Below the pieces are notes generated by a model. The model was not told where the DNA came from. It did not search any database and was given only the letters and a program-made list of their open reading frames with translations. This document shows, piece by piece, positions 21,831 through 47,300 of a stretch of 64,000 nt of DNA. Origin of the DNA: Strigamia acuminata (taxonomy: Eukaryota > Arthropoda > Chilopoda > Geophilomorpha > Linotaeniidae). Both the position numbers and the translations under genes were made by a program. The DNA lies in the NCBI GenBank assembly GCA_949358305.1, contig OX442314.1:28877118-28941117 (forward strand), written 5' to 3'. Position 1 is the first letter of the stretch, and every line of letters starts with the position of its first letter.

Positions 21831-21837
21831 ATGCAAC

Positions 21838-26803: not shown

Positions 26804-27285
26804 TGCGGCGATCCGGGTTTTTACTTAATAAATCGAGGAGACTTATCAAGCAATCGTCGTAGAGATGCCGTACAGGACTTCTACTCTGTGGCCAAATGTT
26901 TGTCTAGGGGAATGATTTTACACAGAGTAAAGGAAAAATTAGATAGTTTTAATTAGTTCAAAAATATACAGGAGATATATGCAAAATAATAATGTTTGGG
27001 GTCGATCTGGCTTCTTCTTCACCAATATAAACTCACAGTTGACCGTTGGCTCCAAGATGGCGTCGACGGCGTCGTGTGAGCGCGGAATTTTAGCGGAGTA
27101 AACTCAACGCTAAAATACGCCTCTAAATATACTAAAATCCTCGCGGAGCAAGCTCAACACGAGAATACGTCTTGCACACAGCGATTCGATTATTACGGAG
27201 CAAGCTCGACGTAACAATCGGTCTTCACACAGATCGCTTTGTGGAGTTAAACTCGACACAAAGCCTTCAAATTGACAGAGCAAGC
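26804..27285 (-). repeat. Element B left LTR, first part
   Basis: Matches 61474-61955. It ends inside stem-loop 5 of the LTR, where element A is inserted. It includes stem-loops 1-4 at about 27087-27265 and a YY1-like AAGATGGCG at 27054-27062. Confidence 0.92.
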
Positions 27286-27286
27286 G

Positions 27287-28301
27287 TGTCGCGCTCAACT
27301 CTAACCGTCGCTAACTCGTGGGTTGATTACTTAATTCGACTAACTCACTACCGCTTTGTTCGAGCGGTTTACCCAAAGAAATGATTACACAGATATAAAA
27401 GGTAAAATATAATATAGATTTATTCTGTGGGACAATGTACAGATATATCTTATATATATATATGAAAGGTAAGTAAAAGGTAAATCGGAATAGGTGATGG
27501 GAAATGGAGAGGTAAAGGTAAGATGAAAGCTGGCTGGAATCGGCGAGGTCGTCTGTTGTCTCGTTCGTGTCCAAGATGGCGTCCTCGTTGTGGCAACGTG
27601 ATGTCGTCTTGGGCCGGCGTGGCAAGATGGCGTCCTCGACTCGTCTCTGGCTGGTCCTTCGGGCTCACGCTGGTCAAGCGCGAGTGAATGCTTAGTTAAA
27701 AGGCTTACTTCGGTCTGTTGTCTAGGTTTTTGTGTGGTGTCCGGCGATCACACAGCGGCGGACTCTTCTGGCTCCCGGCGGTCACACAGCGGCGGGAACG
27801 CTCGTCGTGGTTTAACTGCAGTTTAGGCTTGTGCGACCGTTTGTCTGCACAACTCGCTAAACTGGAGTGGTTTTTACTATTTCTAGCTGATGTGCTAAAA
27901 TAGTGTGGTAATCTTATCTCGCAGGTTACTCTGCGGAGTTTGACACTGACCAAACGTACTCACGGTAAATTGTCCTTTGTCCTTGGTCAATCCCAGTATA
28001 TTTACTTGGGCCTGATCTTGTAGGACGACGGGTTTACGTGTGTTTCTCGTTTGATGGTTGTGTTGGTTCTGCCCGCTCAGTGCAAGGCACATTCCTTTGC
28101 ACAAAGCGGGGTTGACAGGTGACCGGAATCACCCAATGGTGGGGTGGACGAGCCATCCCCACTCCCTCAGGGCAGACGCCTGTCCATTGACTAGATGTCA
28201 ATGCACTGAGGGAAGGGAGACGCGCTTGCGGCTCCCCTTACACCCGAAACGAGGTCACGAGAGAAACTCTTCGTTGACCCCGGTCCAGTCGGGTCACCAC
28301 A
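27287..28301 (-). repeat. Element A left (3') LTR
   Basis: Matches 39543-40557 at an offset of 12,256. The only differences I see are three transitions at 27794, 27795 and 27801 (G, G, C here; A, A, T at 40050, 40051 and 40057). Two AAGATGGCG motifs (27573-27581 and 27624-27632). The adjoining tract 28302-28311 (GAGGGGGAAG on the minus strand) is the likely polypurine tract. Confidence 0.92.
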
Positions 28302-28337: not shown

Positions 28338-31300
28338 TCACTTCTTTTCTGGGGGACCCGACACTGAGTCCGTCACCTGGGCGTAACTCACTCCAGGGAC
28401 AGGCGGTTGAGTGCCGGGTGGCGCGAGTAGATCGCCTACTAGCGCCGAGGACCGATCGCGGGGGTCCTCATGCTCCGTAATGAAGCATAATGCATGGCCG
28501 TCAACTGGCTCATGCGGGGCACGCGTCCTCTCGTGTAACCAAACGCTCGGGATGTAGGCGGAGAAGCCGGTGTTCGTATGCCGGATGGCATTGGCTTCCG
28601 CTGGCGTCACTGGTGCACGGTGGGCTCTCAGCAACCTCTGGTGGAAGATGAGGTCCTTAGTCTTCCGGATCTGGTTGTGAAGCCAGATGAAGACCGATTT
28701 GCCTTTATCCCGTTGTGCGAGGATAAACCTCCTGGTCGCCGTTGTCATCGAGAGATGGGGAAACTCTTCGATGATTCGCCCGTAATAGTCTGGTGGAGGC
28801 GGTGCCGGCTTCGGCTTCTGGGTGGCCGCGGGAATCACGGCTTGCGTCGTTGTCGCCGCTCGGGCCGGTGAGGTCCCGGGCGGTGTCGGCTTCGTTTGCT
28901 CGACGGACCTGACGGGTGGCGTTCGGCACAGTAAGCGCTTTGGCTTACCCGCCACTTCGAACAGGGCGGGTCCCTGCGGGGATATCTCCGCAGGCATCGG
29001 TGGCGGAATCGGAACTCCGCTCGTCGGCGAGATCACCATGTCTACATCCTCTGCCGATTCTTCCGTCTGGATGGTCAAGGCGCGCAGTTGTTGGGTAGGC
29101 GCCGCTGTCCAGGTGGCGGAGGTGTAACGAAACGCCGTGCTTCGCAACTTGTACCCTTCAAATTCTGGGTTTACCACATCCCTGGTTAGCTCGTAGCGAG
29201 TCAACACAGGGTCGGGCAGAATGGAGCTCCACTCTGCGAGGAGTGCACGGGGAACCTGTACACCCTCTCTGTCCACGACAGACCATGCGGCCATCGCCTG
29301 ACGCCCTTCTCCGAAGAGTGCTGGGGTTAGCAGCTGCATCATGACCTTGGTCAATGATAGCTGTAGGCTGCGACGATTCACTGGATTCGATCGCTCCGAA
29401 TCCGCAGTGAAGGCACACGAGAGCTTACTCATCATCGCCGTTGCCCATTCGATGAAATATCGCTGGGCTTGATCCACACCTCGCAAGGCGGGTGCGGAGA
29501 CTCTTGGGTCTTCCATCACGAAGCGAAACGCTGAGAGCTCGGAGATAGTCGGGTTGGCGGCTTCTCTCGCGAGTCGCGCTTCTTCGTCTCGCCTCTCGAA
29601 GAACAGGGCCGAGGAACCGGGTCGGGGTCGGCTCGGCCTGTAAATGTCGGTCAAATTGGCTCGACATTCCTGCATAATGCTCTGTCCAACGGGGAGAGGG
29701 ACTGAGCGGTCGGTGGGTAAATCCGGCGGATCGCTCGAATTCAACAACGACGGTGGCGGCAGGTCCGGAGGCGGCTGCGTCTTGGTCGGCAGCGTTGGCG
29801 TCGGCAGCGGTGGTGTTGGCTGCGTCGGCGGTGGTGGCGTCTCCGTCGTCTGCACCCCAGTCATTGCGACTTGGGGCGCCGGGAGATGTTGTTCGGAGCT
29901 TGAGGGCTGCACGATGGCGGTTGGCATGCCATCGGGTCGTGGTCGCGAATTTATGTAGTCTGCGAGCCACCTTGCCACCTCGTGTGGGGTCACCATCCCG
30001 TCGGTGACAACACCCATCTTCCTGGCGTGTTTCATCGCGGGATCGAAACGTGTCAGTTTCGTCCGCTTCATCTGAGTCAGAATCTCGCGAAGGTCCCGCG
30101 TATCTGCCGCTGGGACGTTTCGCTCACCTGACTGGCTACCACTTCGTCGACCCGCTCTCTTGGAGATGTAGGCGGGTTCGGGGATGGGACGGCCCCGAGC
30201 TTCGCACCTCGCGAAGTATCGCTCCTTGCGATCTTTTTTCCGCTGCTCGCGATGAGTCAGCGGACGTCTAGAAGTGCTGGGACGAGAGACTCGCTCTTCG
30301 TCACCAGACATCCAAACCTCCTTGCACTCCTTACCGTCTTTAATCTGACGGTTTACGAAAATTCGCGGTCGGGAATACTGCGAAGGGTCACGCACCGTAC
30401 TAGTGGATGGCCCAGCTTCGTTGCCTTCAGTCGTGTTTGGAGTGACACGCTGCTTCTTGGTTGTCACCGGGGAACGCGACTGGCTGTTTCCGGCGCCTTT
30501 GGAGCGCTTGCGCTTCCGCGGGTAGCTGCTTTTGGGCCCCAAAATCCCCAGGTAGTGGAGCTGCCACATCTCGGCTTGGGACGTTAAAATTCCCATCCGA
30601 GGTCTCCACTGAGGCGTACTCTCCCCCAATCGCAGCCTCTCAAACCACAGATGAATATCATCCGCGGTCATCCCCTCGTTTTGGAGGATGCGCTCGGCCA
30701 CTGCCGCAGCGGTATCCACCAGCTGTTGTCTATAATGCTGATAGATGGCCTCACGGGCCTCTTCTGTCTCGGCTGCTCGCCACGCATGCAGCACGTGTTC
30801 CTCCGCCGGGTTGCCAGTGTACTGACTTGACAATCCGGGGTGGAAAATTGGCGATTTCGGGTCATCGTCATGAGCTAACTCTGTGGCGATGCCTTCGCGC
30901 ATTCCCTCCGGGAATGTGTCCAGGAGCGTGCAGTCTCGTACCCAACGTCGGGCGATGCATCGGGAATGTAGTATTCGCAGGCGCCAAGGGTCGGCGTCTT
31001 CGCCGAAACATCGTCGGTAAAAATCGGGCAGCGCGCCTCGAAATATCCCGCCACGAGTGATGCAAGCGGGGTCTAATGGTCCCCATGTTCTACGTAATGC
31101 CATCTGGAAGGGTGGAGAAATAAACAATTAATAAAAAGTTAACATTAAATACGTAGATAAATGGTTGGTTTCGAGGGACGTTGCCGATACGTGCAGCCGT
31201 CCGTCGAGACCGATTCCTGTCTATCGGTGCAAACGTAGGACGAATTGTCCCTCGTCGGATAGAAAAAGAGAAGTCATCACGTAAAAAATCTGTCTCATGT

Positions 31301-32036
31301 CCAAAACGCACAGCGAGACGGAATCGAGCCTTTAATCTGGATTCTTATCATCAGATTTTACTTCAAATTAATTCTAACATTAATTAGAACATTACTAATA
31401 ATTAAATTAATAATTAACAGTCATTCGTAAAAAGAATTCGTCGGGTGTAAATTATTACTAAAATTGCACAATAAATGTGCTTGTCGAAATTTTATTAAAT
31501 AAATAAACCTAATAAAGAATTATTCCGAAGTCGGACTTTGTCTAAATTTTTAAAAAGAAGTTAAAGTCAAATTAAATTTATCCAACACACCGAAAAATTC
31601 ATCGTACGAATGTTAAGTTGCATCAATTCGATCCGTCAAATTACTTGTGGAGAAAAATATTCTTTTACAGAATATTCTCCCCTTGTCATAAACTTTTTAT
31701 GGCTCGAGCCCATTGTCTCGCTCGTGACTCATGTCATGAGGAATTTTCGAGACGCGAGGCGACGTGAAGTCTACGATCGCATCCCGAAAACAAATTAACA
31801 AGAAAAAAATACGATCGTGTGAGCGATCGCGGTTAATAATCAATTATTCGCTATTTCGAGTGCAAAGCACTCATGTCAGGTATTAGTCAAACAAAATTTC
31901 TTCTTCAGCAGCACGGAACTAATTCTCATGTGCCGATGCCGACTTCTACCTGATCGGGTGGGACTTGGTTTACATCGTGGTCCCAATTCTCGTCCTCGTG
32001 CTCGATGGCCAGCACGTCCTTCTCTTCCTCGTCCAT
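28338..32036 (-). CDS. Element A ORF3, two exons, unknown function
   Basis: Predicted exons are 32036-31950 and 31103-28338, joining in phase 0 to 950 residues. Exon 1 encodes 29 residues, mostly acidic (begins MDEEEKDVLAIEHED), and ends CAG|GTAGAA; exon 2 follows TTTATTTCTCCACCCTTCCAG and starts at ATG. Block 1 (about 30-250): LRRTWGPLDP…FRGALP, Trp/Arg-rich, ending near QAEMWQLHYLG. A long disordered Pro/Ser/Arg/Thr region follows. Block 2 (about 590-730) contains VPRALLAEWSSILPDP. Block 3 (about 840-930): WLHNQIR…FHQRL…SVWLH…LCFITEHEDPRDRSS. All three match element B ORF3, while the linkers do not. It occupies the usual place of env, but I see no signal peptide, glycoprotein features or membrane segment. 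Unbroken in this copy. I do not recognise the family. Confidence 0.75.
31104..31949 (-). other. Intron of element A ORF3
   Basis: 846-bp GT-AG intron, AT-rich, with no internal gene that I support. Confidence 0.65.
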
Positions 32037-32524: not shown

Positions 32525-35500
32525 CTACTCTTTTCCTACGACCTTTCCATCTTTTATAAATGGATTACTTCTACGAGGCCGCAGGTGATGAGTCGAGACA
32601 GGTACGACGTTTTTTGTTGTTTTTTTTGTCTGTACCTCCTCATTATTGCTTTCTTTTTTATCCGTGTTTTTTGTGTTTGTTTCAGGAGTTTCTCCTGTTT
32701 CCCCCCCGACCAAAATTGGATCCGGAACGGATTCAACTATCTCGTTTACCGGAGGTGAAGGGGCGTCGAAATACTCCTCGTTGTCACTTGGCGGTGCTTT
32801 TTCCGACTCGCCAGCGAACATATCGACGATTTGGCCGTCAGTTTTAGACTTGACTTGGCCCTTGGCCCACATTTCTTGCGGGAATTCCGGAATGTACGGA
32901 GTTAACTCTCGTACTTGTATCGACTTATGCTCGGTATTGTCTTCGAGCTTACGTAATTTATACGCGTTACCGCCATGCTTGCCGATGATCACATACGGAC
33001 CGTCTCTCTTGTCGGCCAAGCTGGCGGTGATTCCTCTCGCTGCATTTGAGAGGGTGTGTGCATCTTTCCACACCAAATCATTGATCTCGAAATTCACGAA
33101 TTTTCCACCGCTTTTATCTTGTAAAATGCGGTCGCGCATGTTAAAAATGTGCGCCATCATATGCTTGTATGTGTTCGAAATTGTTTGCTCCAATTTATAC
33201 AAATACTCATGTGGTTTCTCTGGGTCCACCACATTTACCGACTCTGCCACTCGTGGGTCCCAAGGCACTCGTAGCTCTCGGGCGAAGTTGAGGTAGGCCG
33301 GAGAAAAATCTCTCGTCCTCGAGACTGTTGTTCGTATGCTGAACGCGATCTCCCTCAAGTATTCATCCCACCTATTGTGGATGTCAGTGAATATACTTAA
33401 TGCATATTTGATGTCCCTGTTGAGTCGCTCAACGGGATTTGTTCTAGGATTGTAGGTCGAAGTATGTGACGCCACAATCCCGAATTTTTTACAAAACTTA
33501 CCCCAAATTTTCGAGATAAATTGGGGTCCGTTATCGGATATTATTTTACGTGGAAATCCGTAACGTAACGCCACGTCGTAGATACATTCAACGATTTTCT
33601 CTGCTGAAGGTCTAGCGACGGCGTACAACTCGGGCCAACGAGTCGCCACGTCCATTATTACGATAATGTACGCATTTTTATTTCCCGTAACGGGTTTTGG
33701 GCCCATCACATCGACACTTAAACAATCAAAAGGCGCGTAAGGCCCTAAGAAAATAGTTTCGAATGGTGATTTTCTCCTCGGCTTGCACGCTTGACATCGC
33801 TGACATTGGTGGACAAAAAGAGCAATATCTTTTTTCATCCCTGTCCAGTGAAAAAGCTGTGTAGCACGATAGAGTGTTCTGCTTACTCCCGCATGGCTCG
33901 CAAGCGGGTGCCCGTGTAACAACCACAGCACGCGACCGATTAAGGAAGCAGGTATTACTACCTTTACTGCGGTGTCCGATTCACTCAAGTCATCTTGGTG
34001 ATTTGGGTGATGTTTCACCAAAAGGCCGTCATCCAATAGGTAATCTATGGATTCGTGTGCATAACGACGCTTCTGCCTTCTGGTTAAGTTGGGCGGATAC
34101 TTTCCTGTCAGTACGAATCTAGCTCTGTCCTGACATTTTTTGTCTAATTTTTGTTGCACAATTATTTCCTCCCTTGTCGGGGGATTGCTTTGCATCTGCT
34201 TGCCGACATGAGCGTGGAAGGCGCTTAGAAGCGGGTCATTTATTCTCCGCTCTAGCTTAAATTCCTTCTTTGCATCTGAGTAATTGTCAGCAGCTGGTTG
34301 GTATAACCGCGTCCAGAATCCACAGAATTTTACATCTGCCGGAGACGCGGTAGGAATTTCATTCATTTTCCTTAAATCCCAACGGTGACAACTCGTAGGG
34401 CAATAAATGATGCGGGAGTCATCCTCGCCATCATCGTCAGCGTCGATTGGATCTGACACTGGTGCCCGTGACAGAGCGTCAGCCACGACGTTATATTTGC
34501 CGGGCTTGTATTGAATGGTCAAGTCGCATGCCATCAGTTCTAACTGCCATCTGGCTAGTCGACCGGCTGGCTCTTTTAATTTCATCAGCCATTGTAACGC
34601 TTGATGATCTGTGTGGACCACAAATTTGGTATATTCGAGATAATCTCTGAATTTCCTTATGGCCCACACAACGGCCAAACACTCCAACTCTGTGGCGTTG
34701 TAATTTTTTTCAGCGCCTTGGAGTTTGCGACTTATAAACATGCACGGCAGGTCTTGTTCGACTCCGTCGCGCACGTGTGTTTGAAGCAACGCGGCTCCCA
34801 ACCCAACTCTGCTGGCGTCCGTATGTAATATGAACGGCCGGTTTAGGTCGGGTAGAGGCATTACGCCGACTTCCGTCAGCATCCTCTTTATCGCATTAAA
34901 TGCGATGTTGCACTCATTTGACCATACAAATTCGTTTTCATTCTTCAGGAGGTCGGTAACTGGGGCTGCCACTTCAGCTAGACCTGGTAGTAACCTGCCG
35001 AAGAAGTTTATCATTCCCATAAACCGTTGGACACCTTTAACGTCCTCGGGTGGGGGGAAACGATTAATCGCATCGATTTTTTCGGGGCCAATAGCTAAAC
35101 CATTGACTCCAATGCGATAACCCAGGAAGGCAAGTTCCTTTCGACAGAACTTGCTCTTGCCCGGGTGAACGTGTAACCCAGCTTTTGCCAGCCGGGTGAG
35201 CACTTGGTCGATGTGCTCAATGTGCTCTTCGAATGTTTTGGAGGCAATAACTATGTCATCTAGGTATGCCCATACAAACTGATGCAGGATATCACCCAAT
35301 ACGCTTTCGATTAGTCTCTGAAAGGTACTGGGAGCGTTCACTAAACCAAATGGCATGACGTTGAACATCAACCGTCCAATTGGCGAGTAAAATGCTGTTT
35401 TTATCTTATCCTCTGGCCTCATCTCAACTTGCCAGTATCCCTTTGACAGATCCATCGTCGTAACCCAAGAAAAGGGGCTAAGCTCTCTCAAAATGGATTC

Positions 35501-36658
35501 GATAGACGGCATCTGTATGGGATCTATCTCTGTCACCGCGTTTAATGGGCGGTAATCAATGCATAGGCGTGGGTCCGAGCCCGGGCGCATCACGAGCACA
35601 ACTCGCGTCGCGTATTCTCCCTGGGCCTCGGAGACAATGCCACTGTCTAGCATTTCTTGGCACATTTTTTGCACTATTTCACGTTTTTGCGGGTTCATTC
35701 CCTTATACGCAACTCGTATAGGTTTATTATTCGTCAATTTAATTTCGTGAATTGCCCTATTCGTTCGGCCCGGTTTTTTCGACAGGATCCCCTCATATTT
35801 AATTAGGACCCTTCGTAGGGCTGCCGCTTCGTTTAATTCTAAAGCGGCGTCGGCGACAAGCGTTTCCACTACATTGTCCCGTTGCAATTCTGCTACGAAT
35901 GCTTTAAAATCGTAGTCTTGAACGAATTTCTTTAGGCCTTTCTCCCACTGTGTCTTGTCGGCCGCTTCTTTTACAAGAGCTGGTGGCACGACAATTGCGG
36001 GTCTTTCCTTATCATTTCTGATATAATTCCAAGATTTCGTTATTGGATTTGGTTGTATTTCCATTGACGCCATGAGGTCTAAGCCCAACAGAAAAATTCT
36101 GTCGCATGTGGGCAGGACCAGGAAAGGGTGCTGTTCTACCCCTCCGAGCCACTCCATGGTCAATAATATAACTCCTTTTGGACGCGCCATTCCGTTGGCG
36201 GTTTTTAGACGTATATTTTTATTAACGCCTTTTATCTTATCGGTGAGACCCAATGATGCTACTATGTCTTCGGAAACGAACGAGCGATCTGCTCCCGAGT
36301 CTAGCAGTCCCATAATTTTTTCACGTTCTATTGTCATGGGCAACATGCATAGGCGGTTGGTGTATTCGACCGCCACGTTGCACATGAAAACACGAAATTC
36401 TTCTGTGTCTTCGACTACTTGAGGTAATTCTTCAAGCAGTAGGTTCGGTTCTTCCGCCTCAGCCTCAGCGTTTGCGGTAATTACCTGCAAAGCGTTGTTG
36501 GCCCTGTCTTGAATTTGGGCGTTAGCTATGTCACTACCCATTTCTTTGACTGGTGGCGGCTTATCGAACCCTTTGTTGAACCCCTTTTTCTTCATGAATG
36601 GCGCAGACGGTCGAGAAGTTATTTCTTCGCCGCCTGCGCTGACTCGTTTTTTGACTCG
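32525..36658 (-). CDS. pol: Element A pol polyprotein (protease, RT, RNase H, integrase)
   Basis: Reverse transcribes and integrates the element. The frame is open from the frameshift site; the first ATG is at 36595, giving 1356 residues, but expression by frameshifting makes that ATG unlikely to be the start. Positions counted from it: protease GLLDSGADRSF (about 98), RT with YLDD (about 444), RNase H TDASRVGLGAALLQ (about 592), integrase HHCC finger (HPLASHAG…HQCQRCQACK, about 905-940), catalytic D at DVMGP (961), D at SDNGPQF (1020) and E at NPVERLNRDIK (1053). The C-terminal region is acidic, then basic. No stop or frameshift is visible and all catalytic motifs are present. Order and motifs place it in the Ty3/gypsy group. 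Confidence 0.93.
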   Translation of the reverse strand, partial: RVKKRVSAGGEEITSRPSAPFMKKKGFNKGFDKPPPVKEMGSDIANAQIQDRANNALQVITANAEAEAEEPNLLLEELPQVVEDTEEFRVFMCNVAVEYTNRLCMLPMTIEREKIMGLLDSGADRSFVSEDIVASLGLTDKIKGVNKNIRLKTANGMARPKGVILLTMEWLGGVEQHPFLVLPTCDRIFLLGLDLMASMEIQPNPITKSWNYIRNDKERPAIVVPPALVKEAADKTQWEKGLKKFVQDYDFKAFVAELQRDNVVETLVADAALELNEAAALRRVLIKYEGILSKKPGRTNRAIHEIKLTNNKPIRVAYKGMNPQKREIVQKMCQEMLDSGIVSEAQGEYATRVVLVMRPGSDPRLCIDYRPLNAVTEIDPIQMPSIESILRELSPFSWVTTMDLSKGYWQVEMRPEDKIKTAFYSPIGRLMFNVMPFGLVNAPSTFQRLIESVLGDILHQFVWAYLDDIVIASKTFEEHIEHIDQVLTRLAKAGLHVHPGKSKFCRKELAFLGYRIGVNGLAIGPEKIDAINRFPPPEDVKGVQRFMGMINFFGRLLPGLAEVAAPVTDLLKNENEFVWSNECNIAFNAIKRMLTEVGVMPLPDLNRPFILHTDASRVGLGAALLQTHVRDGVEQDLPCMFISRKLQGAEKNYNATELECLAVVWAIRKFRDYLEYTKFVVHTDHQALQWLMKLKEPAGRLARWQLELMACDLTIQYKPGKYNVVADALSRAPVSDPIDADDDGEDDSRIIYCPTSCHRWDLRKMNEIPTASPADVKFCGFWTRLYQPAADNYSDAKKEFKLERRINDPLLSAFHAHVGKQMQSNPPTREEIIVQQKLDKKCQDRARFVLTGKYPPNLTRRQKRRYAHESIDYLLDDGLLVKHHPNHQDDLSESDTAVKVVIPASLIGRVLWLLHGHPLASHAGVSRTLYRATQLFHWTGMKKDIALFVHQCQRCQACKPRRKSPFETIFLGPYAPFDCLSVDVMGPKPVTGNKNAYIIVIMDVATRWPELYAVARPSAEKIVECIYDVALRYGFPRKIISDNGPQFISKIWGKFCKKFGIVASHTSTYNPRTNPVERLNRDIKYALSIFTDIHNRWDEYLREIAFSIRTTVSRTRDFSPAYLNFARELRVPWDPRVAESVNVVDPEKPHEYLYKLEQTISNTYKHMMAHIFNMRDRILQDKSGGKFVNFEINDLVWKDAHTLSNAARGITASLADKRDGPYVIIGKHGGNAYKLRKLEDNTEHKSIQVRELTPYIPEFPQEMWAKGQVKSKTDGQIVDMFAGESEKAPPSDNEEYFDAPSPPVNEIVESVPDPILVGGETGETPETNTKNTDKKESNNEEVQTKKTTKNVVPVSTHHLRPRRSNPFIKDGKVVGKE

Positions 36659-36985
36659 TTTTTTGCCATGGCGAGTTTAATCTCTGCCATCTGCTTCATT
36701 ATCGCGTCAAACTTAGCGTCTTCTTTCGCTGTTCTTGGGCACTCATTGGAATAGTGACCCGGTTGGTTACACTTGAAACAACGAATATTTGATTTGTCTC
36801 TTGGGGCTTCAATCGATTTTTTCTTTTCAGGGTCTACTTTCGATGGTGGCGTGTAATTTTTCCGAAAATACTTCGGAATTCGGCCGGCATTTGGTTTTAA
36901 CCTGGCGCGAAATTCTTCTACCGCTCTATCTCGATGGATGAGATGTACTAGCGGTCCTTCTTCATCGCTTCTGCCAGCTCCATTA
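36619..36985 (-). pseudogene. gag: Element A gag C-terminal part (nucleocapsid), out of frame with gag
   Basis: This frame opens just before the gag stop and encodes a basic segment followed by the CCHC knuckle CFKCNQPGHYSNEC (36780-36737), ending at TAA 36621-36619. It carries two A AAA AAC heptamers close to its end, in the correct register for -1 frameshifting into pol. It is the nucleocapsid part of gag by position and motif. Confidence 0.75.
36646..36664 (-). promoter_or_regulatory. Tandem -1 frameshift heptamers, element A gag/pol
   Basis: Two identical slippery sequences A AAA AAC at 36664-36658 and 36652-36646, twelve bases apart (duplicated ACGAGTCAAAA unit), both in the register X|XXY|YYZ of the nucleocapsid frame. 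The -1 frame after either leads without a stop into pol. Confidence 0.75.
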
Positions 36986-39470
36986 TACCGCTAAGATATT
37001 CAGTAGGGCGCATAATCTTATCTGTCGCCCCATATCTTTCCGCACTCAACTTGAGACGTTTTGCGGTCGCTGCTTTCTCCGCTTCTGGTAAAGCGGAATA
37101 ATATCTCTTCTCGATATCTATCGTGTTCTCGAACAGGAAGGCGCTCATTTCTTCGTAGCTGCCTCCTGTCGGTGCCCTTTCTTCAAGTAGCACCCGTTGC
37201 GAGTATTCCGACAAACCGCCGAGAAAGAAAAGGTTGAATCCCGTGGCATGAAATTCCATCGGGGCCTTTTCGAACAACAATCTGGCGCGAATGTCGTAAT
37301 CCATTATGGTTTCACCAGGCATCTGGCGAAGACCTCGCATCTTTCGGCTCACCTCTTCGGGTGTCTCGCCGTAGCGCAGGTCGAATCTCATTAAAAAGTC
37401 GTCCCAATTGACGCCTTTCAATCCTTGGTACCACTCACGTGCCGAGCCTGTCATTAGCTTGACAATACCGTGGGTGAGCATGTCTCCTACGGTGGCTTTA
37501 GTGGCAGTCTTAATTCGAATTACTTCGTCAAGGAAGCGATCTCCCGCTTTCCATGACCCGTCGAAACGGTTCTGAATATAAAATTGCCACCTAATATTCC
37601 CGGTAACACTCATGGTGTCACGTCGGGAGACAGCGTATTTTTTCTTTACGCGGTCGCCAGTGCTACGATTACGATCGTTTCGTTTGCTCAGATCGATTCC
37701 CTCAGCTTTTAACGAGCCGAGTAGGGCTCTTCCAAGCTCTCCCATCGTATACTGCCGACCCGTCAAATCGGTAAACGCGCTTTGTCGGGGAAGGTCCTGA
37801 AACTCCTCCCGTCGGTGGTCTCTATTTTCCGATCGACGTCGTTTCTCTCTATCGCGCGGAGAGTTGGATCTCTTCCGGCGATTACTTGATTTATCATTTC
37901 GTCTGTCGTCGTTGGATGAGGGGTCGGAGCTGGGGTCGGGAGACGGTGAGCGGCGTGGCGGGTTGCGCCGTGAAGAGTTTGACTCTTTCCGGCCCCTACG
38001 ACGGTCGTCACGTTCCCTTTCCCTGCGTTCATCGCGTTCTCTTTCCCTTCGTCTTTCTCCGGAACCTCTCTCCGAATCGTGATGACTGGGTGCATTTGAC
38101 TCCAGTCCATCTGACGACGAATCACTATTTCCGTAGTGATAATATTTCGGTCTTTCATCGCGTTTGCCTTCTTCTCGCGAAGAGGTGCGATCATGCGATT
38201 GTCTCCTTGACGACTCGTCGTCTTTAAGGATGGGCACTGGTTGTTGCCACTCAGTCCTTTGCGGATTATCATGCTGTTGGCTTGTGAGAGCTTGCTCTTC
38301 ATTTCGCCTAGCATTATTAGCGTTGATTAATCGCGTTATCGCATTATTTGTGGCTGAATCGAGAGCTTGCATGCGGGGCCGAGTTTGTTGTTCTCTGGCC
38401 GACGCATCTCTCTTGCGCGGAGTAGCTGGTGTTGCCCTCTCCGGCTGGGGTTTGGGTTTGGCCTTCGGCGTGCGCTTTGGGTCTCCCTCTAGGCTCTCGT
38501 CGGACAGCTCGGATAAACTGACCTCTGGTTTGCGGACGGATTTCGGGTCATCTCGTCGCAATCTGGCCATAAATGCTCGCTCTGCTTCTTGTTGCGAGTG
38601 GAAAGCATATCGATGTGCTCTCAGGGCTCGGTCAACTATTTCTACCTCCTCGGGAGTAGTCGGATTGGGCTGGGTTCTGCCGTACTCGAGAGCTTGCGCT
38701 TCTCTTTCCGCCAGCTTCCTCCGTCTCTCGCGAATGGCTTGTCGAGCCTCGTTCTCTGCATCCGCTTCAAATTGAGCGGAATCAACCAATTGTTGAGCGT
38801 GTGCACCTTCAACAATGGTGATTTGTGGGGATACACTGTGCGCTTTTAAAGCTGCACGTACGATTTGTAACGTTTCGTACACTGTAATCTTTCCCGTCGG
38901 AAGGGTGTATCTCACTCCCTCCGCTTGTGCCAATTGCATCGCATCAATCAAGGTGCCCGAGACGCTGTAAGGCTGGCTCGAAACACGCTTGACAGAGGAC
39001 GAGTTGGACTTGTGCCCTTCAGACATTACCGAGGCTGGTCGACTGTGCGTAATTGGCGTGTTTAGCGCTGAATTCGCTGTCGTGTCGGACGCCGTCCTTT
39101 GTATCGAAGACGTCGCTCTCGGATCGCTCACTTCGGTATCGTGCGTTAGACGAGGCGATTGGTTACGGGATAAAACCTCGTTTCCGCTCGTCTCGCCGTC
39201 ACGATTGGGACGCGGCGGTTTGGGGTGGGACGGATCCTCACTCTGCTCCGTCTCGTCTAATCGCTGCCTCGTCTCGGCGTGAGACGGGTGCGATGCCTCC
39301 GAAGCGCTTCGTCGGTCTGGCTTGGCCTTGCGGCGTTTTTGCCTAGACTCGTGCGCTGAGGCTTTGGGCAAAGGACCTCCCGACCTCAAATGATAGTCGG
39401 TTCCTTTGCGACTACCGGCTCGTTTGTTAACGTCTGAGTCGGAGTCTGTTACTCGAGTATTATCTGCCAT
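36948..39470 (-). CDS. gag: Element A gag (capsid polyprotein)
   Basis: 840-residue frame. The N-terminal half is polar and low in complexity (Ser, Arg, Pro), with a helical Glu/Ala/Arg-rich stretch at about 200-310 that is the part duplicated at 20232-20490. About 440-580 is very rich in Arg/Asp/Ser dipeptides (RERERDERRERERDDRRRGR-like). A capsid-like Retrotrans_gag region lies at about 620-790 (GNIRWQFYIQNRFDGSWKAG… to …YSQRVLLEERAPTGGS), aligning with the same region of element B. The frame stops at 36948 without a zinc knuckle; the knuckle lies downstream in the -1 frame. In B both parts are in one frame, so a one-base indel near 36950-36985, or an assembly error there, is the simplest reading. 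Confidence 0.87.
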   Translation of the reverse strand: MADNTRVTDSDSDVNKRAGSRKGTDYHLRSGGPLPKASAHESRQKRRKAKPDRRSASEASHPSHAETRQRLDETEQSEDPSHPKPPRPNRDGETSGNEVLSRNQSPRLTHDTEVSDPRATSSIQRTASDTTANSALNTPITHSRPASVMSEGHKSNSSSVKRVSSQPYSVSGTLIDAMQLAQAEGVRYTLPTGKITVYETLQIVRAALKAHSVSPQITIVEGAHAQQLVDSAQFEADAENEARQAIRERRRKLAEREAQALEYGRTQPNPTTPEEVEIVDRALRAHRYAFHSQQEAERAFMARLRRDDPKSVRKPEVSLSELSDESLEGDPKRTPKAKPKPQPERATPATPRKRDASAREQQTRPRMQALDSATNNAITRLINANNARRNEEQALTSQQHDNPQRTEWQQPVPILKDDESSRRQSHDRTSSREEGKRDERPKYYHYGNSDSSSDGLESNAPSHHDSERGSGERRRERERDERRERERDDRRRGRKESNSSRRNPPRRSPSPDPSSDPSSNDDRRNDKSSNRRKRSNSPRDREKRRRSENRDHRREEFQDLPRQSAFTDLTGRQYTMGELGRALLGSLKAEGIDLSKRNDRNRSTGDRVKKKYAVSRRDTMSVTGNIRWQFYIQNRFDGSWKAGDRFLDEVIRIKTATKATVGDMLTHGIVKLMTGSAREWYQGLKGVNWDDFLMRFDLRYGETPEEVSRKMRGLRQMPGETIMDYDIRARLLFEKAPMEFHATGFNLFFLGGLSEYSQRVLLEERAPTGGSYEEMSAFLFENTIDIEKRYYSALPEAEKAATAKRLKLSAERYGATDKIMRPTEYLSGIMELAEAMKKDR

Positions 39471-39522
39471 TTCTTGCTTTGGGTATGAAGTAATCTCAGG
39501 TTAGAATCAGTTATTCAACTTG

Positions 39523-39540: not shown

Positions 39541-39542
39541 CG

Positions 39543-40557
39543 TGTCGCGCTCAACTCTAACCGTCGCTAACTCGTGGGTTGATTACTTAATTCGACTAAC
39601 TCACTACCGCTTTGTTCGAGCGGTTTACCCAAAGAAATGATTACACAGATATAAAAGGTAAAATATAATATAGATTTATTCTGTGGGACAATGTACAGAT
39701 ATATCTTATATATATATATGAAAGGTAAGTAAAAGGTAAATCGGAATAGGTGATGGGAAATGGAGAGGTAAAGGTAAGATGAAAGCTGGCTGGAATCGGC
39801 GAGGTCGTCTGTTGTCTCGTTCGTGTCCAAGATGGCGTCCTCGTTGTGGCAACGTGATGTCGTCTTGGGCCGGCGTGGCAAGATGGCGTCCTCGACTCGT
39901 CTCTGGCTGGTCCTTCGGGCTCACGCTGGTCAAGCGCGAGTGAATGCTTAGTTAAAAGGCTTACTTCGGTCTGTTGTCTAGGTTTTTGTGTGGTGTCCGG
40001 CGATCACACAGCGGCGGACTCTTCTGGCTCCCGGCGGTCACACAGCGGCAAGAACGTTCGTCGTGGTTTAACTGCAGTTTAGGCTTGTGCGACCGTTTGT
40101 CTGCACAACTCGCTAAACTGGAGTGGTTTTTACTATTTCTAGCTGATGTGCTAAAATAGTGTGGTAATCTTATCTCGCAGGTTACTCTGCGGAGTTTGAC
40201 ACTGACCAAACGTACTCACGGTAAATTGTCCTTTGTCCTTGGTCAATCCCAGTATATTTACTTGGGCCTGATCTTGTAGGACGACGGGTTTACGTGTGTT
40301 TCTCGTTTGATGGTTGTGTTGGTTCTGCCCGCTCAGTGCAAGGCACATTCCTTTGCACAAAGCGGGGTTGACAGGTGACCGGAATCACCCAATGGTGGGG
40401 TGGACGAGCCATCCCCACTCCCTCAGGGCAGACGCCTGTCCATTGACTAGATGTCAATGCACTGAGGGAAGGGAGACGCGCTTGCGGCTCCCCTTACACC
40501 CGAAACGAGGTCACGAGAGAAACTCTTCGTTGACCCCGGTCCAGTCGGGTCACCACA
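39543..40557 (-). repeat. Element A right (5') LTR
   Basis: 1015 bp, starts TGTCGCGCTC and ends GGTCACCACA. See the left LTR for the differences. Confidence 0.92.
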
Positions 40558-41151
40558 AGCTCAATGTCAATTTACACACAGAAATGGCTTAAATTACGCG
40601 TAGTAATTCAAGCTAGAAAGTTGCTATTCCGTACAGTGGGTACAGACCAGCGATGAAACTCAATTCGTCCAAGAATCACAGATCACACTTTGCAGTTTTG
40701 GCAGAAGTTTGACACGGTTGTGAACAGTTTAGAGGTGGAATCAAGAGTGCGGGAAGAGTGGGCCAAAACCGTTTGGCTCACTCCAAAATCTGCTCAGTAA
40801 AGCTGCGCAGATGACGAGTTGCACAAAGATCACACACGGCCGCCTTCGGGTCGTGTGCAACAATTGAGCCGGGCACGCGCGAGGGGAAGGGATGCTCCGC
40901 CCAGGCACACGCCTAGCAGCATCATCAAAGCAATGCACGCTGCAGCATGATTGGTTGACGCTGTTGCCGGGCCAAAACTTGCTGCAAAACACAATATTAT
41001 TTGGGTAATATGGTGTCTTGTTTTATATTTGATTAAGATATATTTTATTTCAATTTACATTGAAACAAAACATATAAACTTGTTGAATATGTTTCTAAGA
41101 CAATTTGGAAATATGGTGCGCACTCAAATAGGAATATTTGAGGTCACCACA
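40557..41151 (-). repeat. Element B left LTR, second part
   Basis: Continues the LTR interrupted at 27285; 40557-40560 is the second copy of the AAGC target duplication. Matches 61952-62546. A purine-rich tract on the minus strand (41152-41165, complement of CTTCCCCCCCTTTT) adjoins it and is the likely plus-strand primer site of B. Confidence 0.92.
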
Positions 41152-41324: not shown

Positions 41325-44156
41325 TTATTTAGGCAACATGTCCGTCGAATGATCATTTGGATCCTTGTGCTCTGTGACGGTGCACAAAGATCGGCCGACG
41401 TTTGGTCCTGACTGGAAGCCAGGGTTGATGTGAAGCCACACTTGTTTTATGCGGTTCACACCATCCCTTCGTCCAAACCCCATTTCGAAGTACTCCTGCG
41501 GGTCCTTCGGCGTGATCCTGGCAAAAACGAGACGTTGATGGAGGAACCACAGCTGTTGTTCTTTGATGTGGTTCTCCAGCCACGCGAGGACTCGGTTGCA
41601 GAGATCCTCGTTGTTCTGGAGAATCGTCTTCGTTGCACTCGTTATGTAGCAAAATGCATACACCGAGCGCAAGCGTTGATAGGCGCTTAAGTATGTTGCC
41701 ATATTAAAGCCCCTCTCTCTTGGTGGCGAATCCTTTGGCGGTGGTGGTGGTGGCGGCGACTTTTTGCAGATCGAGAGCGATCAGGATATGCGCGAAGCCG
41801 GGGCGCGCGTCTTTGGTCTTGCACCGCTGGCCACAGGCACGACGAACTCGCGGTTGTCACTGTCGAGCCATTCCATTGGAGACGAGAGTTGGCAACTCGG
41901 TGCTTCGGTTGCTCGCATGACACCCGACGTTGCCGCTACGACAGTGTTGAGTGGAGCGGCTGATGATGGTGGAGCGCCAGCAGGACGGGCGGTAGCTCGT
42001 TCCGTTGCGCGTTGCTGTTTCAGCGTAGCCCATTCTTGCCGTAGTCGAATGGCGGACCCAGCTGGGGTTTCGCCAGTCGCCTCGGCTTGGTGCGTTAATT
42101 CGGCGAGCATGGTCGGAGGATCGGGGCGAACTGACTCCCAATCGTCCAGCAAGGCTCGAGGAAGCCCTAACGGCACGGTCCACAATCGAGTGGCGGCCGT
42201 CAGAGCCATTCGTAGGTCAGGAAAGACTCCTTGGAACAGGATTCTAAGAAGCCCCTCCGACAGTTTCCTGTGCATCTTCTGCAGCGTTCGTTGCAGTTGT
42301 TTGTCGGATTTGCACGACTCGATCTCTCGGGCAACCCATTGCCATCCTTTTTCACCTTCGCGGATCTGAGCGAGTTGGTATTCGTCCAGATGCGCGAGGT
42401 ACATTGTTTGGGCTGTCTCGGGAAACGATGAGAATCGCCTCCAGAGATCAGCGCACTCCTGTGCGGGAAATGGTTCCGGCGAGATGTGTGATCCCTCGAA
42501 ACGAATGACTGTCGTCACTTGTGGCTCGGGCACAGACGTATCGAGTCGCATGTCGCTGGTGACTGGACGGCAAGCGAACGGCAAAGAGGTGTTGACGTCT
42601 CCCTGACCGGCTTGCAATGCGGCGATGCGTCGATCTTCCTTCGCTATCTCGTCCGACCAGTCGATCTGGCCGGAGGAGGAAGCGCTAAGCTGTGAAGCGT
42701 TGGATTTTTCCTCACGCGACGAGAGTGAACTCCTCGGATTGGCGCGATTGCACTCGAGGTCGGCTTCGGGATGAGTGTCTTGAAACGGACTTCGAATGTC
42801 TTTTCGGTGGCGTTGACTCGCGTCGATGATGTGAGCGATGACGAGTCTTCTGGAGTGGAGGTAACCCTCCAATGGCGCCTTCCCCCGACGACTGTGTTGG
42901 GGAGGAGCGACGGCCACTGTAAGGCGACCTCGATGATCGTGACCTCGACGTGGAGCGCGGTGGCACCACGTGGATGGTGGATGCGATTGGTACCCGGGGC
43001 TCGGGCTCTGGGTACGGGTTCGGCACGAAGTTAGCGTGGAAACATCCGCCCATGGCTAGTTGATGCATCTCCGATTGGCATGTCGGCACCCAACGTCTCC
43101 TTCCGTCCGTGGTTGGCCGGAAAGATTCGTGGTAGAGGCGCACAACCTCGGCTTTGGTTTGGTCCAAGCGTTGGAAAATGTCCTCCAAAATCTGTCGACG
43201 CTCCCACGCAGGAGCGTTGAAGTAACGGCGATGGTCTCGCGTTTCTTGAGCGATCACTACGAAGGCGAAGTCTAGCAACACATTTCGTAGTGGTCCGTAG
43301 GTGTCGCGCTTCTGTGCCCACTCGAGGGCGTCGCGATGACCGAATCCATCGATTAATTAGGCAATCCGGAACTTTGTCCCCCATCGCTTGTTAAGGGCTT
43401 TGGAGAATTTGTGGCGGGCCGCCCAAAACGTCAGTCTTCCTTTAGACTTGATGATTTCCGGCGGCAAAGCGTGTCGCCAGACGCCGGGATCGGTCGGAAC
43501 ATCGGGATGCAGTTCGAGATGTGTTTCCCGAAGCTGGATGATCTGTAAAATATTCGAAGAAATAATTAAAATCCATTTTTTCGTCAAAATTAATCATTTC
43601 CGAATTTTAAGTGAATAAAATCACGGTGAGATTTCATTCGACAGTTTAGATTCGTTAAATTTTTCAAAATAATTGAAAAATCGTGAAAAACGTTGTTTCC
43701 GACGGCTATGTTTCAATGTTGGAGCGTTACCGTAGCAACGCCTCAAAAACGAGACACAGCGCCATCTGATGATAAAAATGGCGGCGCCTTCTTGCGAAGG
43801 CGTTACCAACGAACTTTTCGCTTTTTCCGAGTGAAAATGCACTTTTAATTACTTTTCATGACTGAAAGGTAATTTTATTTTAAATTATTTACCTGTTCGT
43901 GCCTCTGCGCACGTGTTTCGCCGTTTGGATCGGCGAATAGGCCTCCTCGTAGTCGGGGCTGGGGCGGCGTGACTGGCAAACGGGCAGCAGCGTCGGCCAG
44001 AGCGGCTTGAGCTTCGGCGGACGCTTCGGCGGACTCTTCGGTGACATCCACGAATGCATTCGAGGTGTTTGCGGAACCAAGCAGCGTCGAATTTGTTTCT
44101 AATTCGAGACTGTTGGCGCCGACTTTGCTTCCTTCTTTCGGTTCCTCTTCTTCCAT
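41325..44156 (-). pseudogene. Element B ORF3, spliced, degraded
   Basis: Third ORF after pol; function unknown. Exon 1 (44156-43893, 88 codons, starting MEEEEPKEGS) ends at a CAG|GTAAAT donor. An acceptor ending TTTTACAG precedes 43542, with phase 0 on both sides and an intron of 350 bp. Exon 2 runs toward 41325 but is damaged: in-frame stops at 43351-43353 and 41781-41783, and a frame change between about 42710 and 42917. Three blocks resemble element A ORF3: LRETHLELHPD…GVWRHALP near the exon 2 start with QSEMHQL further on; LPRALLDDWESVRPDPP; and QVWLH…LCTVTEHKDPNDHS at the C-terminus. I see no signal peptide or membrane segment. Confidence 0.7.
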
Positions 44157-44366
44157 TTGAACGACTAATCCAAATGGAAAAGAAAAACGAAAATTAATTT
44201 ATTAGCTTTTCCTTGGAAAATTCCAAAGAAAAAACTACTTACAATTGAAGAATCTCGTTGAAATAATCCGATTGTTTCGCTTTTGGTTCTTTGGAGATGA
44301 GCACTTAACACACGTGTGAGATCGAAGTGAACTCAGACGCGAAGTGATCAGTTCAAATACCGGAAG

Positions 44367-47300
44367 TTACGTTTGGGTAACGTCGTGGTTAGCGACGTCA
44401 TCCAATCTTATTATTTGATTGGTTTGCGTATGGCTTGGGGAATTGCTCCTTACGTCATACGGCTGATCCCTGGATCTCGAGGTTATCGAGGGGAGAAGAC
44501 ACATGTTGTTTTTTCCTCTCGGTTTACGAGTCCGAAGATTATATCTCTTTGTCGGCGAGGGATTTATTGTATTTAAATCGCCGTCTTCATTGTCATCGGA
44601 GACTGAGTCAGATGAGTCTTTTGTTTTAGATGTTTTTTGTTTCTTTTCTAAAAACACCTTTTTATTTAATTTTTTAGCAATTTCAAGCTTTTTGAAACTG
44701 TCTCGGAGCTCAACGTCGTTGTTTACAAAATCGGACTCCAGGGGGCGATTAGATGAATTATCGACTGGTATTTTCTTTAATTCATTGTCATCTAACGTAT
44801 TAATTATATTTTCAGTCTTTTGACCGACTTCTTCGCCTTCGAGCCATACTTCCTGATCAAAACTCGGGAAATACGGAGTTAATTCCGATGAATGGACAGC
44901 TGGAAATATTTCGTTATTTTCTAGCTTTCTCAATTCTACTGAACCTCCCTGTAATACTTTGGTTATTACATAAGGTCCTGTTCGTTTATCAGCGATGCCA
45001 GCTGCAATGCCGCGGGCAGCACTCGACAAAACATGAGAATCTCTCCAAACTAAATCGTTTAATTTAAAATTGGAGAACTTCTCACCTTCTTTTTTAATAT
45101 TCACTCGTCTACGTAAATCTAACACGTGTGACATCATGTGCTGATATGTTTCGGCGATAACTGCTTCTAATTTTTGCACGTATAAATGTGAGTTTTTTGG
45201 ATCTACGACCAAAATTCCTTCAGGTATTCTTGGATCCCAAGGTACTCTGAGTTCGCGAAAAAAGTTAAGAAATGCGGGAGAGAAGTCTCTTCCTCTCGTC
45301 ACCGTAGTTCTCAAACTAAATGCAAATTCACGCAAATATTCGTCCCATTTGGAATGAACAGATGAATAAATTGCAACAAGATATTTGATGTCACGGTTAA
45401 CTCTTTCAACCGGGTTAGCCTGCGGGTGATACGTTGAAGTTGGCGTTGGAACCATCTTGAACTTTTCACAAAATTTTTTAAAGACTTGGGCACGAAATTG
45501 CGGGCCGTTGTCAGAAATAATTTTACGAGGGAATCCCATGCTCATGGAAAGGTGATAAATGCAATTTGCTACTTTTCCAGCAGTGAGGTTACACATTGGA
45601 TACAATTCTGGCCAATGAGTTGCCACGTCAAGTATGACTAAAATATGTGTGTTGTTTTTGCGCGTCCGTGGTTTCGGGCCGGTCAAATCAACACTTAGGC
45701 AGTCAAATGGGCTGTAAGGACCCATTTGCGCTGCTTCAATTTGTCCTTTCGTTCGAGGCTTGCAAGCTTGACAGCGCTCGCAGTGTCGAATGAATCTCGT
45801 AATGTCCGATTTCATGCCTTTCCAGGTATAAATTCGGCGCGCTCGATAAAGAGTCCTAGCAATTCCTGGGTGGCCAGAAAGTGGGTGGCCATGCATCAGC
45901 CAAATAATTTTATACTTCAATGTCTGAGGTACAAATACTTTGAGTGCTCTCCCATCCTCCCCCAATTCATCAGACATTGTGGGATGAAATTGCATTAGTA
46001 AGTCATCTTCAATTAAGAAGGTTGTTGCGTGTTTTCTATATTGTTTCCTCTGAAGTCGCGTAGTGACGTCAGGCGGAAATTGATTACAATTTAAAAAATT
46101 ACGCATCAATTGACAAACTTTATCTTCTTTTTGGGCCTTAATTATGTCTTCCCTTGTGGGGGGTTCACAATCAAGACGCTCTACAATTTTGGCGACAAAT
46201 GCTTTTATTAAAACATTTGACGAAGGAATTTGGAATTTCCTTGAAATTTGTGCTCTTATGACGTCATCTGATTCTTCAGAGGGGTCATAAATTTTAGTCC
46301 AATAGTTGACGAATTCGTGATCTTCCTTCTCTTCCAATGTGGAGACAGGATGTTCATGAAATTTTCCCATTTTCCAATTTCGTTGTGGTGATGGACAATA
46401 AGATAATAACTCGTCATTATCTCCATCGTCTTCAGGATTTTCTGGTTTATCAATCGGTGATCTGGATAAAGCATCCGCTAAAACATTTAGTGGACCTTTA
46501 ATGTATTGTATTTCGAAAGAATAGCGCATCAGCTCTATTTGCCAACGTGCCAGCCTTCCGGCAGGTTCGTCTAACTGCATCAACCATTTTAATGCTTGAT
46601 GGTCAGTCCTTACTATGAATGTTGTAAATTCCAAATAATGTTGGAATTTACGTAATGCCCAGATTACTGCTAGGCATTCTAACTCTGTGGCGCTGTAATT
46701 TATTTCAGCAGGTTGTAAACTTCTGCTGGCATAAACGTAAGGCACTTCGATGTTTTGATCATCGATTTCTCTCATTTGCATAAGCGCGGCGCCTAGTCCT
46801 TTCCTGCTAGCGTCGGTATGTACAATAAATGGTTTTGTCAAATCAGGCATGGCCATTGTTTCTGCATTTGTTAAAGCGTCTTTTATTTGATCAAAAGCTT
46901 CTTGATGCATTTCTGACCAAATAAATTCTACATCTTTTTTGAGTAAAGGACGTAGAGGTTCTGTCATAACTGCTAGATTTTTAAGTAATCGGTGAAAAAA
47001 GTTCACCATTCCCAAAAATCTTTGCAACTCTTTCAAATTTGAAGGAGCTGTCATTTCCTTTATAGCGGCGACTTTTTTAGGGTCGACACTAACTCCTTGA
47101 ACACTTAACTTGTAACCAAGAAAAGTTAATTCTTTTCTGCCAAATTTTGATTTTTCTGGATGAACATGAAGATTTGCATTTTCAAGTTTACTCAGAATTT
47201 CTTCCAGATGAATCATGTGTTCTTCAAAATTTTTAGATATAATAATTATATCATCGAGGTATGCCCATGCAAATTTTCGATAGGCGTCCCCCAAAATTTT

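What the first reader, a model, noticed from the sequence alone, without database searches (positions are those of the whole stretch)
28338..32036. A spliced third ORF (ORF3) after pol, shared by two divergent elements
Elements A and B both carry a large ORF in the env position. In both, a first exon with an acidic start (29 codons in A, 88 in B) ends at a CAG|GT donor, and the second exon starts with related sequence (LRRTWGPLDP…FRGALP against LRETHLELHPD…VWRHALP) in the same phase 0. Two more blocks are shared (VPRALLAEWSSILPDP / LPRALLDDWESVRPDP and WLH…LC.(I/V)TEH.DP.D.S), while the linkers are unrelated. Conserved blocks between diverged pol genes suggest selection on the protein. No membrane or signal features are visible, so it is not a typical envelope. 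I do not recognise the family.
Basis: partly seen in the sequence, partly recalled or inferred. Interest (0 to 1): 0.87.

Follow-up and report, generated by a model that had tools for sequence, protein, structure and literature searches.

The report
Spliced extra gene in centipede retrotransposons
Three old lineages of jumping genes in a centipede carry, after their copying enzymes, an extra two-exon gene of unknown kind that is kept by natural selection and is really spliced, as intron-free copies in the genome show; it is probably a regulator of the element's own RNA rather than a virus coat protein.

Summary
The window is Strigamia acuminata (centipede) chromosome 1. Elements A and B are Ty3/gypsy LTR elements; A sits inside a B LTR. 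Both have ORF3 after pol with the predicted splice sites. The genome holds at least three ORF3 lineages (A, B, D): pol 49-67%, ORF3 22-36% identical, hundreds of copies, dN/dS 0.09-0.26. Splicing is shown by genomic fossils: 14 copies (A 1, B 9, D 4; reversed-pattern controls 0) carry the exact exon1-exon2 junction, in phase, intron gone; pol is still attached in the five examined, so spliced RNA reaching into pol was reverse transcribed. Five of the 14 also lost a second, unpredicted 66-78-nt intron. 402 places keep the exon-intron border. ORF3 matches nothing in Pfam, the PDB or two fold libraries; no membrane segment. Best reading (0.4): a regulatory protein made only from spliced RNA that controls use of unspliced genomic RNA, working like CERV of nematode Cer1 or retroviral Rev; not shown, and not a CERV by the features tested. 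The window's own ORF3-B copy is broken. A pol-ORF3 deletion fusion has at least 15 copies.

The parts
31950..32036 (-). ORF3 exon 1 of element A (29 codons, acidic)
   Evidence: ATG kept in 28 and GT donor in 29 of 30 loci; pN/pS 0.26; joined in phase to exon 2 in genomic copy L071
31104..31949 (-). Main ORF3 intron of element A (846 nt, GT-AG)
   Evidence: precisely absent from L071 at C6:10318255; its exon-intron border is present in 260 places
28338..31103 (-). ORF3 exon 2 of element A (921 aa)
   Evidence: 46 of 49 scored genome copies without a stop (best-scoring rows, so biased to intact ones)
30519..31103 (-). N block of ORF3-A (about residues 1-195, my bounds)
   Evidence: alignment of A, B, D; weak by itself: A-B E=0.02, A-D E=0.001
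29109..29693 (-). M block of ORF3-A (about residues 471-665, my bounds), holds VPRALLAEWSSILPDP
   Evidence: low pN/pS (0.12) in D44/L047; the D block (L047 361-541) is helical in the model, with ten-residue means of mostly 65-84 in its better part
28434..28793 (-). C block of ORF3-A (about residues 771-890), best conserved part
   Evidence: A-D 33% over 117 aa, E=2e-16; B-D 49%, E=1e-33
32525..36676 (-). pol of element A (protease, RT, RNase H, integrase)
   Evidence: Pfam matches
36619..39500 (-). gag frames of element A (with CCHC knuckle at the end)
27286..28299 (-). 3' LTR of element A (about 1015 bp)
   Evidence: 99.7% identical to the other LTR
39542..40555 (-). 5' LTR of element A
   Evidence: 5-bp target duplication at 27281-27285 and 40556-40560 inferred from the split B LTR
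44165..44242 (-). leader mini-intron of ORF3-B (78 nt), between pol and exon 1
   Evidence: the same intron is precisely absent from L072 and L074 (B) and, in D, from L069, L081, L082
43893..44156 (-). ORF3 exon 1 of element B (88 codons)
   Evidence: an 88-codon exon 1 in phase in 9 of 9 intronless B copies
43543..43892 (-). Main ORF3 intron of element B (350 nt)
   Evidence: precisely absent from 9 B copies; its exon-intron border is present in 82 places
41325..43542 (-). ORF3 exon 2 of element B, broken in this copy (one stop, two frame changes)
   Evidence: related copies with one open frame exist (L039, L040)
44367..48626 (-). pol of element B
   Evidence: 50% identical to pol A over 1255 aa

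Best explanation
ORF3 is a two-exon accessory gene of one clade of Ty3/gypsy elements. Its protein can be read as a whole only from RNA from which the main ORF3 intron has been removed, while gag-pol and the inherited copy come mostly (about nine in ten or more) from RNA that keeps it. I think the protein is a trans-acting regulator of the element's own RNA, acting to get or keep intron-containing genomic RNA available (nuclear export, splicing balance or stability), so that spliced RNA is the early message and unspliced RNA the late one. Shown: gene structure, splicing at both introns, protein-level selection, co-inheritance with pol. Supported by hydropathy only: no membrane segment. Inferred: that it acts on RNA, in the nucleus, and on export.
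For: Spliced junction in 14 genomic copies of three lineages, none with the reversed patterns; in 14 of 14 exon 1 reads in phase into exon 2; pol is attached in the 5 of 14 examined on that side, so the main intron is spliced from RNA that reaches into pol. Exon-intron border kept in 260 A, 82 B and 60 D places against 1, 9 and 4 without the intron: unspliced RNA is the main template and must leave the nucleus with functional introns. dN/dS 0.09-0.26 over whole exons. GC3 of ORF3 0.59-0.64 in all three lineages against 0.33-0.49 in pol and 0.31-0.52 in gag of A and B. Conserved blocks joined by variable linkers, no membrane segment. Precedent: CERV of Cer1, a spliced non-envelope protein in the env position needed for gRNA export (PMC10309623: abstract, sections 9 and 15 and passages read).
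Against: No RNA-binding or export domain was recognised. NLS-like Lys/Arg clusters were found only in A (4), none in B or D by the same scan; linker 1 of D is not basic (net -3); Arg-Ser dipeptides in linker 1 are within what shuffles give. Intronless copies exist at separate places (9 in B, probably several events), and a deletion derivative without introns, exon 1 or the N block has at least 15 copies, so neither introns nor whole ORF3 are needed in cis. Unspliced RNA may simply leak out because splicing is poor. Both structure models are of low confidence (mean pLDDT 37 and 43).
Confidence: 0.4

Rival explanations
1. ORF3 is a particle or trafficking cofactor: a second structural protein that binds Gag or RNA in the cytoplasm and helps assembly or movement of particles.
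For: Large blocks modelled as mostly helical and proline-rich linkers, with a run of prolines before the C block in all three lineages; no export or RNA-binding motif; one of 12 members matched Retrotrans_gag at E=0.17.
Against: Profile comparison of ORF3 with the gag of A and B gives nothing (probability 0.2%, E 0.26; two gag sequences only). The 0.17 match is chance level.
Confidence: 0.2
2. ORF3 counters host silencing (piRNA or chromatin) of the element.
For: ORF3 has diverged more than pol in every lineage pair (22-36% against 49-67% identity), which fits contact with changing host proteins; the families are very successful (hundreds of copies).
Against: dN/dS is low, not raised, over whole exons in every comparison; no direct evidence.
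Confidence: 0.15
3. ORF3 is a degenerate or unconventional envelope or cell-to-cell transmission protein.
For: It lies in the env position and is spliced, as env is.
Against: No membrane segment (19-residue hydropathy at most 1.2); no Pfam env match in 12 members.
Confidence: 0.07
4. ORF3 is passive captured sequence that happens to stay open.
For: The frames are GC-rich, which makes stops rarer.
Against: dN/dS 0.09-0.26, conserved splice sites and phase in three lineages, C block 33-49% identical while linkers diverge.
Confidence: 0.02

Closest known systems
CERV of Cer1 (Caenorhabditis elegans, Ty3/gypsy; PMC10309623, abstract, sections 9 and 15, passages)
   Same: Non-envelope protein in the env position of a Ty3/gypsy element, from spliced RNA, fast-diverging, several conserved blocks separated by linkers, no known relatives outside its group.
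   Different: CERV exons 1-3 share the gag reading frame and it has a conserved Cys loop and a G-protein-like domain (paper); here exon 1 lies after pol with its own ATG, only one Cys is invariant across A, B, D, and the introns lie inside or just before the third gene.
Retroviral Rev/Rex/Tat-type regulators (recalled, not searched)
   Same: Multi-exon protein whose coding intron lies in the 3' part of the genome, so that it is made only from spliced RNA.
   Different: Much larger; no arginine-rich motif or export signal established.
ORF3 proteins of bdelloid rotifer LTR elements (PMC5408684, abstract and passages seen)
   Same: Non-envelope third ORFs after pol in animal LTR elements, said there to be expressed from spliced messages.
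   Different: Those are GDSL esterases, DEDDy exonucleases or coiled-coil and membrane ORFs; no GDSL or exonuclease Pfam match here.
Additional ORFs of plant LTR elements, with the nuclear gene23 product of maize Grande (PMC7264820, passages seen)
   Same: Extra ORF between pol and 3' LTR, function unknown, some with own promoter or splicing.
   Different: Plants; Grande's is antisense; no sequence comparison was made here.
BARE of barley (PMC3735527, passages seen)
   Same: LTR element whose RNA is partly spliced to separate roles of its RNAs.
   Different: [quoted passage not shown] here 14 integrated spliced copies were found.

Membership tests
Ty3/gypsy LTR retrotransposon (element A) | protease, RT, RNase H, integrase in that order in one pol | tested here: met
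Ty3/gypsy LTR retrotransposon (element A) | paired LTRs and short target duplication | tested here: met
   LTRs 99.7% identical, 5-bp duplication read from the interrupted B LTR
CERV (Cer1) | env-position gene of a Ty3/gypsy element read from spliced RNA | tested here: met
   (genomic copies of spliced RNA, no RNA reads)
CERV (Cer1) | N-terminal exons in the gag frame | tested here: not met
   exon 1 lies downstream of pol with its own ATG in A, B and D; a further upstream exon cannot be excluded without RNA data
CERV (Cer1) | cysteine-rich loop, invariant in CERV | tested here: not met
   only one Cys (C873 of A) is invariant in A, B, D
CERV (Cer1) | G-protein-like domain | tested here: inconclusive
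   no significant Foldseek match; only residues 376-540 of L047 were really tested; models of low confidence
CERV (Cer1) | needed for nuclear export of unspliced gRNA | not testable with these tools
   needs an experiment
CERV (Cer1) | sequence homology to CERV | not tested
Retroviral or errantiviral envelope | membrane-spanning segment | tested here: not met
   hydropathy only
Retroviral or errantiviral envelope | env-family profile match | tested here: not met
   no env family at E<=1 in 12 members
Bdelloid ORF3 enzymes (GDSL, DEDDy) | GDSL or DEDDy domain | tested here: not met
   no such Pfam match in 12 members at E<=1
Rev/Rex-type export regulator | coding exons joined only in spliced RNA, intron in the 3' part of the element | tested here: met
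Rev/Rex-type export regulator | nuclear localisation signal | tested here: inconclusive
   NLS-like clusters in A only
Rev/Rex-type export regulator | nuclear export signal | not tested
   not scanned

The most novel reading that the evidence does not exclude
A hitherto undescribed family of large retroelement regulators that evolved independently of Rev and of CERV, in a third animal group (myriapods): the element hides its regulator behind an intron so that splicing is the switch between an early, spliced, regulator-making RNA and a late, unspliced, gag-pol and genome RNA, with the two RNA classes kept apart also in base composition.
Probability: 0.33. Interest if true: 0.78.

Novelty: new variant of a known kind. 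Interest (0 to 1): 0.62.

Why it matters
Third ORFs of LTR elements are common and mostly of unknown function; CERV is a recent case with a shown role. This set gives three deeply diverged lineages with open copies in one sequenced animal, genomic proof of splicing, a measured ratio of spliced to unspliced templates, and natural derivatives without introns or without the N block, so the question whether such proteins control unspliced RNA becomes testable. If the regulator reading is right, control of unspliced RNA by an intron-dependent element protein has arisen more often than known.

Tried and rejected

How the ORF3 message gets its 5' end stays open. A motif scan for donors gave one moderate site in each stretch of LTR, leader and gag start, but its motif would also have missed the proven main donors of A, B and D, so it says little. 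Two perfect TGACGTCA sites in the pol-ORF3 gap of all three D copies looked at, none in the window A and B gaps, are a hint at an internal promoter, no more. In D, loss of the leader intron opens the frame to an ATG 59 codons before the junction in 3 of 3 such copies (30 otherwise); in B it stays at 88 in 2 of 2, so the leader exon of D may be partly coding.

Long open frames (1301-2041 aa) were examined as possible gag-ORF3 spliced copies: in the four A-type ones fetched, pol lies where exon 2 was expected to start, so deletions are likelier than subgenomic RNA, but their joints were not read; a fifth (1102 aa) was not fetched and the D-type one (L085) stayed unexplained. Other element families: none of 4 stretches fetched downstream of other RT hits holds ORF3, a weak test: positions were estimated and one stretch (L090) reads as gag and protease of another element.

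Full report
Host and setting. The window lies at G000:C1:28877118-28941117 of 237.5 Mb in 157 contigs. Ten contig lengths (66.99, 37.79, 16.99, 16.15, 14.71, 12.25, 10.36, 9.84, 9.63 and 10.34 Mb) match chromosome lengths of Strigamia acuminata qcStrAcum1.1, 237.5 Mb in 158 scaffolds (PMC10556566, passages with Tables 1 and 2 seen), so this is centipede chromosome 1. Element A has LTRs at about 27286-28299 and 39542-40555, 99.7% identical, and lies inside one LTR of element B (pieces 26804-27285 and 40556-41151 match 61474-62546 at 99.0 and 99.8%); a third repeat pair of 1.9 kb (48739-50644 and 56480-58385, 99.95%) lies inside B. pol A has protease, RT, RNase H and integrase.

The gene. ORF3-A: exon 1 32036-31950, intron 846 nt, exon 2 31103-28338, 29 + 921 codons. 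ORF3-B: exon 1 44156-43893, intron 350 nt, exon 2 from 43542. In this window the B copy is broken by one in-frame stop and two frame changes. Copies with one open exon 2 exist, such as L039 (741 aa from the acceptor, although its exon 1 carries a stop) and L040.

A third lineage. A search with the last piece of ORF3-B scored 150 of 1093 candidates: mostly B-type rows at 90-100% identity and a group at 45-48%, here called D, with single rows at 79, 74 and 62%. A search with the D piece filled all 150 scored of 1160 candidates with rows at 80-100%, one with the A piece filled 150 of 1164 with rows at 98-100%; 49 were scored of 2336 for whole ORF3-A, of which 46 have no stop. These are lower bounds and favour intact copies. 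D has an acidic exon 1 of 30 codons and the same phase.

Homology and co-inheritance. BLASTP: A-B 1e-18, A-D 2e-16, B-D 1e-33; local scores are about three to twelve times the best of 200 shuffles. pol identities A-B 50, A-D 49, B-D 67%; ORF3 24-25, 22-27 and 34-36%. The order is the same, so ORF3 has most likely travelled with pol since the common ancestor of the three, and has diverged faster. None of four stretches downstream of other RT hits holds ORF3, but one of them is not informative and positions were estimated.

Selection. B (L039/L040) 0.13; L039/L041 0.11 and 0.12 in two pieces, L040/L041 0.15; D within 0.14-0.20; D44 against L047, L049, L048 0.15-0.17, L047/L049 0.09; A, 30 loci, 435 pairs, uncorrected: exon 2 0.21, exon 1 0.26. 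A first count on the 9 of 30 A loci found by an exact motif gave 0.17. In D44/L047 the M and C blocks are tightest (0.12), linker 2 loosest (0.49). The intron of L039/L041 is 73% identical against 81% for the coding piece. In A, the intron diverges 2.4% and exon 2 1.7% per site; exon 1, only 87 nt, diverges 4.8%, more than the intron, which does not fit simple constraint on its bases, though its changes are mostly synonymous per site.

Splicing shown by intronless copies. Patterns made of the end of exon 1 and the start of exon 2, two mismatches allowed, found D 4, A 1, B 9 places; the reversed control patterns found none. Five of these loci were compared at length: each is continuous with about 1 kb of pol upstream, within the 1.5 kb held, and lacks exactly the predicted intron; whether the rest of pol, gag and the 5' LTR follow was not looked at. 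The other nine loci were checked over about 620 nt: nine of nine lack exactly the main intron. In 14 of 14 copies exon 1 (30 codons or more in D, 30 in the A copy, 88 in 9 of 9 B) reads in phase into exon 2, which stays open as far as held (38-505 codons) in 13 and for 358 of 504 codons in L070. Five of the 13 B and D copies (L072, L074; L069, L081, L082) also lack a second intron of 66-78 nt between pol and exon 1; the other eight kept it; no such intron is known in A. Seven of the nine B copies were compared pairwise: apart from L076/L077 (0 mismatches) and L074/L075 (5, but different mini-intron state) they differ at 18-35 of about 545-620 positions, so several independent events are likely. 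The donor patterns found 260 A, 82 B and 60 D places with the exon-intron border; these patterns lie partly in introns and so undercount diverged copies. Spliced RNA is thus integrated, but seldom: 1 in 261, 9 in 91 and 4 in 64.

Composition. GC3 of ORF3 is 0.64, 0.59 and 0.62 in A, B and D, that of pol 0.49, 0.33 and 0.34, of gag 0.52 (A) and 0.31 (B). ORF3 proteins of the lineages are so far apart that this contrast has probably been maintained rather than merely inherited; I read it, as an inference, as two RNA classes under different rules.

What it may do. Pfam, PDB sequences and two fold libraries give no match; models are poor except for part of the M block of L047 (helical). No membrane segment. 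The architecture says that the whole protein can come only from spliced RNA while inheritance runs mainly through unspliced RNA. [quoted passage not shown]). I commit to this reading at 0.4. Against it stand the lack of a recognised RNA-binding or export motif, NLS-like clusters in A only, and derivatives that have multiplied without introns or the N block. By membership it is not CERV: no gag-shared exons seen, no conserved Cys loop.

A natural derivative. Of 150 scored rows with the A C block, 15 lie in a frame of 1838 aa. L052 shows why: a deletion from 32577 to 29764 (window equivalents), with about 10 nt of near-matching sequence at the joint, fuses pol in frame to the M and C blocks and removes exon 1, the intron and the N block. 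The same joint is in 15 of 15 such loci; two other loci with frames of 2041 and 1536 aa lack it. One deletion was therefore copied to at least 15 places, presumably with help in trans.

Literature. The listings of searches (20 of 97, 15 of 187, 7 of 7, 8 of 257 and 8 of 53 papers) show no title or abstract start that describes such a gene in myriapods; of five papers I read passages, of one of them two sections in full. This is weak evidence of novelty. The shared protein database was switched off, so relatives in other arthropods could not be sought; how widely ORF3 occurs is unknown.

Noticed in passing
L052 (C1:58743700-58749850) and L053-L066: A single in-frame deletion fuses pol to the M and C blocks of ORF3-A (1838-aa frame); identical joint in 15 of 15 loci, so the derivative was amplified. 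Other pol-ORF3 fusions are likely from frame lengths and upstream pol (L083, L084, L086, L087) but their joints were not read.
   Followed up: partly
window 48739-58385: Element C nested in B: 1.9-kb terminal repeats 99.95% identical, interior holds a 501-aa frame (54383-55888) with two similar stretches and no pol seen in the ORF list; looks like a young non-autonomous LTR element.
   Followed up: no
window 1-7151 and 11477-18627: Two copies of a 7.15-kb stretch 99.99% identical, with complex inverted and tandem repeats at 5.7-8.2 kb; recent duplication or assembly effect.
   Followed up: no
L091, nt 636-2021 of the reverse strand (C8:9406000-9409100): A 462-aa frame with an acidic start and a Lys/Arg-rich stretch, not matched by ORF3, near the RT of another element family; possibly another extra ORF, or a gag.
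   Followed up: no
L044, L045, L046, gap between pol and ORF3: Two perfect TGACGTCA palindromes 56 nt apart in all three D copies looked at; possible internal promoter of ORF3.
   Followed up: partly
L069, L081, L082 (D copies without the leader intron): Without the leader intron the frame runs on to an ATG 59 codons before the junction, so the leader exon of D may be partly coding.
   Followed up: partly
L085 (C1:26204400-26206700): A D-type C block in a 1271-aa frame whose upstream part matches neither D pol nor D ORF3.
   Followed up: no
window 21642-22070 and 63539-63998: Two partly 93% identical pieces that read like part of a degenerin/ENaC-type channel gene (recalled resemblance, not searched).
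   Followed up: no
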